Positions 18,735 through 56,408 of a DNA stretch of 64,000 nucleotides are shown piece by piece. The position numbers were made by a program, and so were the translations under genes. Position 1 is the first letter of the stretch, and each line of letters begins with the position of its first letter. This DNA is from Anaerolineales bacterium (GTDB taxonomy: Bacteria > Chloroflexota > Anaerolineae > Anaerolineales > Villigracilaceae). The notes beneath the pieces are model-generated. The model was not told the DNA's origin and made no database searches. It saw only the letters and a program-made list of their open reading frames with translations. The DNA lies in contig CAKKRM010000098.1 of NCBI GenBank assembly GCA_919902735.1, forward strand, positions 1,531 to 65,530, in the 5' to 3' direction.

Positions 18735-20303
18735 CTAGCAGTCCGAGCAGAAAGTTGGGGTACGACTTGGCGTTGGCGACGGTGTGCGCGACGGTGTGGG
18801 CGTTATTTGAGTTGGTGTGCGCGTTGGTGTGCGCGTTGGTGTGCGCGTGATCGTCGGTGTATTCGTAGGTGTACGGGTCGGCGTACGCGACGGTGTGAGG
18901 GTGATCGTCGGTGTGAGGGTAATCGTCGGCGTCTTTGACGGCGTTGGCGTACGGGATGGCGTGCGCGTGATCGTCGGTGTGCGCGTGATCGTCGGTGTGC
19001 GCGTGATCGTCGGTGTGCGTGTGATGGTCGGTGTGTTTGACGGCGTGCGCGTGAGGGTGGGTGTGGCGGTGTAATTATTGATACTGCCCACCACTACACA
19101 GTCACCCCAGTTCGGGAAGTTAAAAGTCAGGCTGATATCCCAGATGCCGGACCAGGTTGAATCGCTAAAGTCCGCAATCCATTGGCGTTCTGTGCCACCG
19201 CCGTTGATTGGGAGCGCTGGCGGGATGGAGGATGTGGTCACTGGAGAGTCGACGATGTTGCTTGCGGGGTTATAGTATGTTGTCCCAAAATTCGCATAAT
19301 CGAAGTATCTGCCAGCAAGGGGGGATGGCGACCAGCTTAAGGTAGAACTCACCAAATAAGCTGTGGCAAAGTTGTTGTTACGAACACGCGCCTCGAAATT
19401 ATCGCCGAAGAAGCGGGTGCGGTTAATGAAGATATTGGGACAGGATGGCGTAGGTGTATTGGTCATTGTAGGCGTAATGGACGGCGTGCGTGTGGCTGTT
19501 GGCGTGCGGGTTGGCGTGGGCGTGAGAGTCATCGTTGGTGTATTGGTAAGCGTTGGCGACGGCGTGATGGTCGGAGTTAGCGTGATGGTCGGAGTTAGGG
19601 TAATGGTTGGAGTGCTGGTGGGAACTGTGGGGATGTTAAGCGGCAAAGGCGTGTTGATGGCGCGCGTGGCGCGAAATTGCTCCACAATCCCTTCACGATA
19701 GGAAGCGAGATGGATCATCGAAGGCTCGATGCCAAAGGCTGGCAGAACGATAAAGGTAAAGTTGTAATCTGCGGCAACCACCACACGATTCCCAGGCGCG
19801 CCGGGGTGTTCGTTACGGATGCCGTCCAGGTTGCATTCAGCATATACGGGTCTCGCCATTAATGGGGGGATGAAGACGCGCCCCTCTTCCGCTGAACAGA
19901 CGGTGATGTTGAAATAATTTTCATCTGCATTTGTCGCGGGGTCCGGGGAGCTAAACAGCGAGGTATCCCTAAGGAAAAAGCCAACCACAATGCGGCGGGT
20001 TTCATCTTTGATGGAAGGGATGCGGGCGGCATCCACTTCCGCGTCGCCATCGTCGCAGTCTCCGTCTGAATTGCCAATTAACCCGCAGTATGGGTTGTCT
20101 TCGAAATTACCCGTTGTGGCGTAGCGGATGCCGAAACGGGTGGAATTCTCGATGATGATCCAGGCAAACATCAGGCGGGAGAATTCGATGACGCCCACCA
20201 AAAGTAACAGCAGGATCGGCAATACGAGCGCGAACTCAACCATGCCTTGCGCTTTTTTGCGATCAGGCGAACTTCGAATTTTTTTGAAAAAAAGATTGTT
20301 CAT
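18735..20303 (-). CDS. TadE-like pseudopilin-type protein with two Thr/Pro-rich low-complexity regions
   Basis: KKAQGMVEFALVLPILLLLLVGVIEFSRLMFAW (TadE N-terminal segment); long PTITLTPT / TRTPTITRTPT tracts; C-terminal CSDC. Confidence 0.87.
   Translation of the reverse strand: MNNLFFKKIRSSPDRKKAQGMVEFALVLPILLLLLVGVIEFSRLMFAWIIIENSTRFGIRYATTGNFEDNPYCGLIGNSDGDCDDGDAEVDAARIPSIKDETRRIVVGFFLRDTSLFSSPDPATNADENYFNITVCSAEEGRVFIPPLMARPVYAECNLDGIRNEHPGAPGNRVVVAADYNFTFIVLPAFGIEPSMIHLASYREGIVEQFRATRAINTPLPLNIPTVPTSTPTITLTPTITLTPTITPSPTLTNTPTMTLTPTPTRTPTATRTPSITPTMTNTPTPSCPNIFINRTRFFGDNFEARVRNNNFATAYLVSSTLSWSPSPLAGRYFDYANFGTTYYNPASNIVDSPVTTSSIPPALPINGGGTERQWIADFSDSTWSGIWDISLTFNFPNWGDCVVVGSINNYTATPTLTRTPSNTPTITRTPTITRTPTITRTPTITRTPSRTPTPSKTPTITLTPTITLTPSRTPTRTPTNTPTITRTPTRTPTRTPTQITPTPSRTPSPTPSRTPTFCSDC
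18775..19070. repeat. Degenerate tandem repeat array encoding [ST]RTPTIT
   Basis: Repeated GTGTGCGCGTGATCGTCG-like units on the plus strand; coding on minus as TITRTPTITRTPT. Confidence 0.9.
19440..19635. repeat. Second Thr/Pro-coding tandem repeat array in the same gene
   Basis: GGAGTTAGCGTGATGGTC / GGCGTGCGGGTTGGCGTG units; coding TPTITLTPTITLTPTIT. Confidence 0.88.
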
Positions 20304-42839: not shown

Positions 42840-42980
42840 GAGTGTAGAACAGAAGTATCGGTAAAATTTCACCAAGCGCCTTGCAATGTTTAACGCAAAG
42901 GCGCAGAGATGCAAAGGAATTAAATTCTTGACGTCTTGGCGGCTTTGCGTTAAGAATCCCGGCAGTTTTGCGCCATACCC
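42840..42980. mobile_element. MITE-like element family B, copy 1 (~141 bp)
   Basis: Ends GAGTGTAG...AAGTATCGGTAAAATTTC and GGCAGTTTTGCGCCATACCC; flanked by AGTCAAAC(T/C); interior similar to 55525-55656. Confidence 0.8.
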
Positions 42981-43032
42981 AGTCAAACCACCCAGGATGT
43001 TCGTAAAAGGGCGTTACGGTATAATTGTGCTT

Positions 43033-53888: not shown

Positions 53889-53997
53889 CCTTTGAGGAGA
53901 GATGTGCCAGCGTACCGGCAAAGCTATTCTAGCACAGGCACCCTGTTTTGGTGTGTTATACTTTTTATGTGATTTTCATCATAATTTCGGAGGCCGA

Positions 53998-55488
53998 GTG
54001 AGAAACCGTAATACCAACACCATCCTTCGCGGGGTATCCATTTTATTCCTGACCGTCGCGCTCGTACTTACAATCCTTTCCCTCATCAACTACAGTCGTC
54101 AAAGAAATAACTACCCCGCCAGCATGACCATTGCCGGCATCTCCGTGGGCGGCCTGTCGCCTGCCGAGGCGTCTCAAAGACTGCTTGAAGTGTACACGTC
54201 CCCAATCGAAGCGCAGTACGGCGACGCGATCATCCACATTGACCCAGGCACAGTTGGTTTCGAAATTGATGTGGAAACCATGCTTGCCGCCGCCGATCTC
54301 AGCCGCACAGGCGGCCCCTTTTGGGGTGGATTTTGGGACTCCATCTGGAACCGCACTCCACCTGAGACTCAAATTCCATTGAGTTCTTCGATCTCTGAGG
54401 AACGCTTGCGCGAATACCTGCAAAACGAGATTGCGCTGCGCTATGACCAGCCCCCTGCCCCCGCACAACCGGTTCCAGGCGGGACCTCGTTCCTGCCCGG
54501 CGCGCCCGGACAGACTCTCGATCTTGGCCGCGCCGTCCTGCTCATTACGGATGCCCTGAGATCACCAACCAACCGCACGATTGCGCTCTCGTTCACCCGC
54601 AGTTCCGCCTCGAGGCCGACGATTGAAAACCTTGAAATCCTGCTTAAGCAAATCATCACCGTTTCAGACTTCGACGGGCTGATCGGTTTTTACATGCGAG
54701 ACCTGCAAAGCGGACAGGAAATCCACTTTGCGATGGATAACAAACAGGAAATTTCAGCCGAGCCTGATATTGCCTTTACCGCATCCAGTACCATCAAAGT
54801 GCCAATCGTGGCTTCGTATTTGATTAACCGCGGCAGTAACCTGGATGCGGCAACTACAGATGCGATCTCTCGCGTTTTAGCAAAGTCGGACAATTCCGCC
54901 ACCGACCAGGTTCTCGAGCGCATCGACTCGAACAACGGCCCCATCATCGTCACACAAAACATGGAATCACTGGGGTTGAACAGCACCTTCCTCGGAGGCA
55001 TGTTCTTCCTCGGCGCGCCAAACCTATTGCCCGGGCGGCTGACCCCCGGCAACCAAAGGGCCGATGTCTTTACCGACCCAGACCCCTATTCACAGACCAC
55101 TCCTTCTGAAATGGGAACCCTGCTGGCGGATATTTATCAATGCGCCCAAAGCGGAGGCGGCGCGCTCGTGGCCGCCTTCCCGGATAAAGTCAACCCTGCC
55201 ACCTGTCAATTGTTGATCGATTTCATGGCACAAGATAAACTTGGCTCGCTCATCCAAGGCGGCGTCCCTGACGGCACGCTTGTACCGCACAAGCACGGTT
55301 ATGTACTATCCAGGGACGGCATCATGCACGACACGAGCGACGTTGGCATAGTTTATTCGCCAGGTGGGAATTTTGTGTTGTCCGTTTATACCTTTCATCC
55401 CGTTCAAAATATTTGGGATAATACCAACCCTCTGTTCGTAAACCTGACCCTGGCCGTATATAACTACTTCAACGTTTCAACTCAATAA
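53998..55488 (+). CDS. Class A beta-lactamase-like serine hydrolase with N-terminal YoaR-like peptidoglycan-binding region
   Basis: GTG start; FTASSTIKVPIVASYLINRG (SxxK) and LAKSDNSATDQVLERI (SDN); IPHKHGY-type KxG segment. Confidence 0.83.
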   Translation: MRNRNTNTILRGVSILFLTVALVLTILSLINYSRQRNNYPASMTIAGISVGGLSPAEASQRLLEVYTSPIEAQYGDAIIHIDPGTVGFEIDVETMLAAADLSRTGGPFWGGFWDSIWNRTPPETQIPLSSSISEERLREYLQNEIALRYDQPPAPAQPVPGGTSFLPGAPGQTLDLGRAVLLITDALRSPTNRTIALSFTRSSASRPTIENLEILLKQIITVSDFDGLIGFYMRDLQSGQEIHFAMDNKQEISAEPDIAFTASSTIKVPIVASYLINRGSNLDAATTDAISRVLAKSDNSATDQVLERIDSNNGPIIVTQNMESLGLNSTFLGGMFFLGAPNLLPGRLTPGNQRADVFTDPDPYSQTTPSEMGTLLADIYQCAQSGGGALVAAFPDKVNPATCQLLIDFMAQDKLGSLIQGGVPDGTLVPHKHGYVLSRDGIMHDTSDVGIVYSPGGNFVLSVYTFHPVQNIWDNTNPLFVNLTLAVYNYFNVSTQ

Positions 55489-55524
55489 CAACACCAGCAG
55501 ACCCGTTTTCCCGCCAAAGGCGCG

Positions 55525-55656
55525 GGGTGTAGCGCAAAAGTATCGGTAAATTTCTGCAACAAACGTCTAACGCAAAGACGCCAGGCCGCAAAGCATTAAA
55601 TTCCTGGCGCCTTTGCGGCTTGGCGTTAAAGCTCCCGATAGTTTTGCGCCATACCT
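55525..55656. mobile_element. MITE-like element family B, copy 2 (132 bp)
   Basis: GGGTGTAGCGCAAAAGTATCGG ... reverse complement of right end AGGTATGGCGCAAAACTATCGG; perfect 9-bp direct repeat AAAGGCGCG at 55516-55524 and 55657-55665. Confidence 0.9.
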
Positions 55657-55706
55657 AAAGGCGCGAAAACCGGTCTTTTTTTCACACATCGTATATAATT
55701 CAACGT

Positions 55707-56408
55707 ATGAGCGCCTCACTGGGACTTTTCCGCCTTCAGCAAGTCGACCGTCAAATAGACCGCGCCCGCACCCAACTCGAAACCATCCGAAAAACACTCG
55801 AAAACGATGTGGAATTAAAAGAAGCCCTGCACCGCGTAGAGACCGCTCAGACCGACAATCACCGCGCCAGCCATGAAATGAAATATGCAGAATCAGAAGT
55901 GGATGCGCAAAAGATAAAGATCGAACATGCCGAATCCAGTTTATATGGCGGGACGGTAAAGAACCCAAAAGAATTACAGGATCTGCAAAAAGATATAGCT
56001 TCGCTTAAAAAGTACCTGGTCACATTGGAAGAGAGCCTGCTCGAAAGCATGTTCAAGGCGGAAACCGCAGAAAACGAATTGCAAAATGCAAAGAACGAGC
56101 TTGAAAAAATACAGGCGCGTCTTGGAAGCGAACATGGAAAGTTGATCGAGGAACAATTCACATTTTTTAAACATCTCGAAAGACTGACGGAGGAGCGCGA
56201 AGCGGCTCTTGCCCCCATCGAAATCAATCTGCTTCAAATTTACGAGGGACTGCGCCAGCAGAAGCGCGGCGTGGCCGTGGCAGAGATCATCGATAACGCT
56301 TGCGCATCCTGCGGCACAACCGTGAACGCCTCCTTTCAACAAAATGCGCGCTCTCAAAAGCAACTGGTAAACTGCCCATCCTGCGGACGCATCCTCTTCG
56401 CGAACTAA
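55707..56408 (+). CDS. Coiled-coil protein with C4 zinc ribbon
   Basis: Coiled coil, NPKELQDLQKDIASLKK; C-terminal CASCGTTVNASFQQNARSQKQLVNCPSCGRIL. Confidence 0.88.
   Translation: MSASLGLFRLQQVDRQIDRARTQLETIRKTLENDVELKEALHRVETAQTDNHRASHEMKYAESEVDAQKIKIEHAESSLYGGTVKNPKELQDLQKDIASLKKYLVTLEESLLESMFKAETAENELQNAKNELEKIQARLGSEHGKLIEEQFTFFKHLERLTEEREAALAPIEINLLQIYEGLRQQKRGVAVAEIIDNACASCGTTVNASFQQNARSQKQLVNCPSCGRILFAN

What the first reader, a model, noticed from the sequence alone, without database searches (positions are those of the whole stretch)
55499..55682. MITE-like family B inserted into an intrinsic terminator hairpin
Excising 55525-55656 plus one AAAGGCGCG duplication regenerates AGACCCGTTTTCCCGCC-AAA-GGCGCGAAAACCGGTCTTTTTTT. 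This is a 17-bp stem with two mismatches and a T-tract just downstream of the serine hydrolase stop (55488). The element therefore appears to have landed in the terminator loop and right arm. This could reflect hairpin targeting or alter read-through into the next gene.
Basis: partly seen in the sequence, partly recalled or inferred. Interest (0 to 1): 0.75.

Follow-up and report, generated by a model that had tools for sequence, protein, structure and literature searches.

The report
Promoter-seeking mini-transposon inside a terminator
A 132-bp mobile DNA scrap in an uncultured Chloroflexota bacterium has landed in the loop of a transcription terminator, most likely not because it seeks hairpins but because its transposase family inserts at a fixed distance upstream of promoters, and here the next gene's promoter sits right behind the terminator.

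Summary
Positions 55525-55656 hold a 132-bp element with 22-bp inverted ends, flanked by an exact 9-bp duplication (AAAGGCGCG). It is absent at this locus in all 29 congeners read. Most of them keep an intact terminator there, and the 94%-identical relative has a single copy of the target.

The element is a MITE of the ISKra4 (Mutator-like) transposon family: full-length ISKra4-family ISs in congeners share its ends and make 9-bp duplications.

Hairpin targeting is not supported: 11 of 22 insertions fall in hairpins, against 10.3 expected from local DNA. The sites share another feature. A -10 box lies 38-41 bp from one end in 18 of 29 elements (19 of 58 flanks; shuffles mean 0.9, maximum 5) and in 13 of 51 independent ends (0.75 expected). 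An unrelated MITE of the same genome shows 1 of 35. This is the published upstream-of-promoter specificity of the ISKra4 group, seen here in MITEs.

At this locus the next gene's TATAAT lies 38 bp from the junction. In most relatives the same slot falls inside the terminator hairpin, so the landing is a by-product of promoter targeting. Predicted pairing of the terminator stem is unchanged. Read-through remains untested.

The parts
53902..55488 (+). Upstream gene: beta-lactamase-like serine hydrolase (Pfam PF13354), whose terminator was interrupted
   Evidence: ORF; Pfam E 1.2e-18
55499..55515 (+). 5' arm of the intrinsic terminator (AGACCCGTTTTCCCGCC)
55516..55524 (+). Left copy of the 9-bp target duplication (AAAGGCGCG)
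55525..55656 (+). 132-bp ISKra4-family MITE (family B)
   Evidence: ends shared with ISKra4-family ISs L156, L162
55525..55546 (+). Left terminal inverted repeat GGGTGTAGCGCAAAAGTATCGG
55635..55656 (-). Right terminal inverted repeat AGGTATGGCGCAAAACTATCGG; this end faces the downstream promoter
55561..55630 (.). Inner palindromic core shared with two other TIR families and with standalone repeats
55657..55665 (+). Right copy of the 9-bp target duplication
55660..55676 (+). 3' arm of the terminator (GGCGCGAAAACCGGTCT)
55676..55682 (+). T7 tract of the terminator
55694..55699 (+). -10 box TATAAT of the downstream gene, 38 bp from the element's right junction; present in all 29 relatives 6-8 nt before the ATG
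55707..56408 (+). Downstream gene: CT398-like coiled coil / C4 zinc-ribbon protein, apparently leaderless
   Evidence: ORF; Pfam PF24481, PF02591; spacing

Best explanation
55525-55656 is a non-autonomous ISKra4-family MITE. An ISKra4-type (Mutator-like DDE) transposase inserted it with a 9-bp target duplication at a fixed distance upstream of a sigma-A-type promoter, here 38 bp from the -10 box of the CT398/zinc-ribbon gene. In this compact intergenic region the terminator of the preceding gene lies directly upstream of that -10 box, so the promoter-defined slot coincides with the terminator loop; no recognition of the hairpin is needed. Shown by computation: the element, the 9-bp duplication, empty alleles, partner ISs, the fixed distance to a -10 box, and the overlap of slot and hairpin in relatives. 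Inferred: that the transposase reads the promoter (perhaps through bound RNA polymerase), that the MITE was mobilised in trans, and that termination and the downstream promoter still largely work, since both stem arms, the T-tract and the promoter core are all present.
For: Exact 9-bp duplication here and in 12 further elements. ISs with the same ends and exact 9-bp duplications in two congeners, matching the ISKra4 transposase model (E 6e-31). A -10 box at 38-41 bp in 18 of 29 elements / 19 of 58 flanks, shuffles mean 0.88 and maximum 5, no other 4-bp slot above 3; independent ends 13 of 51 vs 0.75 expected, among them ends that carry IS sequence; unrelated family A MITE 1 of 35. The published ISKra4-group specificity is a -35 at 13-17 bp from the junction, on both sides when the inverted repeats are nearly complementary (PMC3942029). 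Here the -10 is at 38 and the slot 38 bp upstream of the -10 lies within a predicted helix in 26 of 29 relatives. The three other clear terminator insertions L109, L170, L178 also have a -10 box at 38-40.
Against: 11 of 29 elements have no -10 box in the slot, including the two complete ISs L156 and L162, which have possible -10 boxes closer, at about 31-33. -10 boxes are computed, not mapped. This genome gave no ISKra4 transposase match, so the source transposase is inferred. Several of the 26 helices are weak or are not the terminator.
Confidence: 0.85

Rival explanations
1. Hairpin targeting: the transposase recognises terminator hairpins or cruciforms and inserts in or next to the loop.
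For: This copy, L109, L170 and L178 lie in terminator-like hairpins.
Against: 11 of 22 sites in hairpins vs 10.3 expected from the surrounding noncoding DNA; 6 vs 6.6 at -15 kcal/mol. The position in the hairpin varies, and all four sites are explained by the -10 register. The sample is small.
Confidence: 0.05
2. Chance: a random insertion tolerated because it fell between genes and left the terminator arms and promoter intact.
For: Intergenic location; predicted stem pairing unchanged, and 26 of 60 shuffled inserts do as well.
Against: The family as a whole is in register with -10 boxes far beyond chance, and this copy is in that register.
Confidence: 0.07
3. Domesticated regulator: the insertion was kept because it changes read-through or the promoter of the downstream gene.
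For: It sits between terminator arms and about 50 bp upstream of the inferred start of a conserved gene; the self-complementary insert forms one continuous long hairpin in the RNA (-81.9 kcal/mol for the intergenic region).
Against: Seen only in this genome of 30 read at the locus. Predicted stem pairing is unchanged. No expression data.
Confidence: 0.03

Closest known systems
ISKra4 group of the ISKra4 IS family (p-MULT 4; Guerillot et al. 2014, PMC3942029)
   Same: Transposase family of the partner ISs, inverted repeats of about 22 bp, 9-bp duplication, insertion upstream of sigma-A promoters on either side of the element.
   Different: This copy is a 132-bp element without a transposase. 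The signal is seen as a -10 box at 38-41 bp with no conserved -35 in the targets. The partner ISs have a split transposase frame, a feature reported for the ISMich2 group (-1) rather than the ISKra4 group; here the second frame is +1.
TnGBS / ISLre2 (p-MULT 3)
   Same: Fixed-distance insertion upstream of sigma-A promoters (15-17 bp from the -35).
   Different: Different transposase family; oriented insertion with the right repeat at the promoter, whereas here either end can face it.
REP / palindromic intergenic repeats
   Same: Short, palindromic, intergenic, many copies; the inner core resembles such a repeat.
   Different: Element B has terminal inverted repeats and a 9-bp target duplication, and shares ends with a DDE-transposase IS.

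Membership tests
ISKra4-family MITE | Short, no transposase gene, terminal inverted repeats, several copies per genome | tested here: met
   132 bp with 22-bp imperfect inverted repeats; at least seven further copies in this genome
ISKra4-family MITE | Direct repeats of 8 or 9 bp (PMC3942029) | tested here: met
   Exact 9 bp here and in 12 further elements, 7-8 of 9 in most others
ISKra4-family MITE | Ends shared with an IS whose transposase is ISKra4 family | tested here: met
   L156 and L162 (1.48 kb) and ends L094, L097, L107; NCBIfam NF033572 E 8e-32 to 6e-31, but 108-111 bits, under the curated cut-off of 205 because the frame is split or the contig cut
ISKra4-family MITE | Inverted repeats of 18-39 bp with a conserved terminal cytosine (PMC3942029) | tested here: inconclusive
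   22-bp repeats; most ends of the family finish in C (GGG.../...CCC) but this copy's right end finishes in T
ISKra4 group (promoter-targeting lineage) | Insertion at a fixed distance upstream of sigma-A promoters | tested here: met
   -10 box at 38-41 bp in 18 of 29 elements and 13 of 51 independent ends; equivalent to a -35 about 15-18 bp from the junction with a 17-bp spacer
ISKra4-family MITE | Mobilisation in trans by the ISKra4 transposase | not testable with these tools
   Needs a transposition assay; no transposase match in G000, only a truncated IS end at C252:48495-48516

The most novel reading that the evidence does not exclude
A genus-wide set of promoter-reading MITEs: ISKra4 ends carry interchangeable palindromic cores taken from host repeats and are placed by the transposase in strict register with -10 promoters that lack a conserved -35, presumably by contact with bound RNA polymerase. 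They would systematically replace the region upstream of promoters and, in compact genomes, split the preceding gene's terminator.
Probability: 0.35. Interest if true: 0.6.

Novelty: new member of a known kind. Interest (0 to 1): 0.5.

Why it matters
It replaces an appealing but unsupported idea (hairpin targeting) with a tested rule that predicts where these elements land. It extends the promoter specificity known for ISKra4-group insertion sequences to MITEs, and to targets recognisable only by a -10 box, which would favour recognition of bound polymerase over a DNA motif. The insertions also point to leaderless promoters in uncultured Chloroflexota, and show how a terminator next to a promoter becomes collateral damage of promoter targeting.

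Tried and rejected
Hairpin targeting (no enrichment). A full-length partner IS in this genome: the end at C11:9504 runs into a PAS-domain protein, not a transposase, and no ISKra4 match was found in G000. The idea that the insert is specially suited to keep the terminator arms together: 26 of 60 shuffled inserts do as well. An Rfam family in the region: none. The consensus sigma-70 promoter scan found nothing, as it demands a -35 hexamer. Papers on MITEs or transposons in terminators: nothing on point in the held library.

Full report
What was checked. The window lies on contig C98 of a 4.26-Mb draft genome. Named records that carry the same inverted repeats are mostly Chloroflexota/Anaerolineae metagenome bins. 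The element at 55525-55656 is real: 132 bp, 22-bp imperfect inverted ends (GGGTGTAGCGCAAAAGTATCGG / AGGTATGGCGCAAAACTATCGG), and an exact 9-bp duplication AAAGGCGCG on both sides. Joining the flanks with one copy of the duplication gives a 15-pair hairpin with two single mismatches and a T7 tail (-19.6 kcal/mol).

Empty alleles. The hydrolase gene upstream has matches in 60 of 61 genomes searched. In 29 same-genus loci the region between it and the CT398/zinc-ribbon gene was read. None carries the element. Most have a short spacer (66-88 bp) with the hairpin GACCCGTTTTC-loop-GAAAACGGGTC followed by a T-tract, or a clear variant. The closest by hydrolase identity (L063, 94%) has a loop CGCCAAAGACGC with a single copy of the target.

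What the element is. The family has at least seven further complete copies in this genome, a decayed one and a chimera, and relatives in many congeners. The 9-bp duplication is exact in 13 elements (this one included) and matches at 7-8 of 9 in most others. Two congeners hold 1.48-kb insertion sequences with the same ends and exact 9-bp duplications (L156, L162). Their proteins match the NCBIfam ISKra4 transposase model (E 6e-31), as does a transposase fragment ending just inside a B-type end in a third (L094). This genome gave no ISKra4 transposase match, only a truncated IS end. The element is thus an ISKra4-family MITE; mobilisation in trans is inferred.

Hairpin targeting. For 22 insertions the empty site was rebuilt and compared with the noncoding DNA around it. 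Eleven fell in a hairpin of -12 kcal/mol or better, against 10.3 expected, and 6 against 6.6 at -15. The sample is small and gene calls were crude, but nothing points to hairpin recognition.

Promoter targeting. Guerillot et al. 2014 (PMC3942029) report that ISKra4-group elements, like TnGBS/ISLre2, insert upstream of sigma-A promoters, with the -35 at 13-17 bp from the junction, and on either side when the inverted repeats are nearly complementary. Tested here on both flanks of 29 elements, a -10 box (at least 5 of 6 matches to TATAAT, A2 and T6 required) begins at position 38-41 in 19 of 58 flanks, i.e. 18 of 29 elements. No other 4-bp slot exceeds 3, and dinucleotide shuffles give a mean of 0.88 and a maximum of 5. 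A second, independent set of 51 single ends gives 13 against 0.75 expected, including ends that carry IS sequence. The unrelated family A MITE of the same genome gives 1 of 35. The aligned targets show TATAAT, a G two bases upstream of it, no -35, and often a start codon within about 10 nt downstream. The test was suggested by the paper after sites L001, L003 and L007 had been looked at by eye, and the slot was fixed on the first set; the independent set is therefore the cleaner test.

Why it lies in the terminator. At this site TATAAT is at 55694-55699, position 38 from the junction. In all 29 relatives a TATAAT lies 6-8 nt before the ATG, and the slot 38 bp upstream of it falls within a predicted helix in 26, mostly the terminator hairpin; a few of these helices are weak or of another kind. 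The terminator of the hydrolase gene and the promoter of the next gene are so close that an insertion in promoter register must enter the hairpin. The same arrangement holds for L109, L170 and L178, the other clear terminator insertions.

Consequences. Because of the duplication, the 3' arm, T-tract and promoter core remain complete, and the 5' arm is untouched. Folding predicts the same pairing of the arms in filled and empty transcripts (14.6 vs 14.8 expected pairs), but random inserts of this length often do so too (26 of 60). These are equilibrium predictions; termination is kinetic, and 141 nt more between the arms could still weaken it. No claim of altered read-through can be made.

Limits. 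The rule rests on computed -10 boxes, not mapped transcripts. Eleven of 29 elements do not show it, and the two complete ISs do not have a -10 box in the main register. The sites come mostly from one genus.

Noticed in passing
window 42840-42980: A second, more diverged family B copy (141 bp) with duplication AGTCAAACT/AGTCAAACC and a TATAAT at position 40 from its right junction (43020-43025), i.e. the same promoter register.
   Followed up: yes
window 55561-55630; L010-L030; L270, L271, L274, L275; L272, L273, L278-L280: The inner palindromic core (TTAACGCMAAGMCGC...GCGTTAA) is shared by three MITE-like families with different ends: B, family A (ends CTCACCTTACGCA, more than 20 near-identical copies, AT-rich target repeats) and a third with ends TATACTGRGCGCGGTCA. 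It also occurs alone. How one core came to lie in three sets of ends is unexplained.
   Followed up: partly
L100, L102, L129, L159, L169, L170, L178, L091, L171: The same B ends carry quite different palindromic cores in congeners (for instance GCTCAAGCCGCCGTCCCCGGCGGC types), as if cores were interchangeable.
   Followed up: partly
L006 (G000:C317:44195 and around): A chimera with a family B end on one side of the core and a family A end on the other, suggesting recombination through the shared core.
   Followed up: partly
L156 262-1594, L162 1764-2940, L157: The ISKra4-family transposase of the partner ISs is split at the same place (TTTTTCCCC) with the second part in the +1 frame in three divergent copies: a candidate programmed +1 frameshift, where -1 is reported for the ISMich2 group.
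   Followed up: partly
L081, L084: In two congeners the hydrolase terminator is replaced by a GGCTCAAGCCGCCGTCCTCGGCGGC-T-tract hairpin resembling the core repeat of other B elements, so a dispersed repeat may have become the terminator.
   Followed up: no
window 18767-19614: An array of degenerate repeats spaced by multiples of 6 bp (GTCGGTGTGCGCGTGATC-like), probably a low-complexity coding stretch.
   Followed up: no
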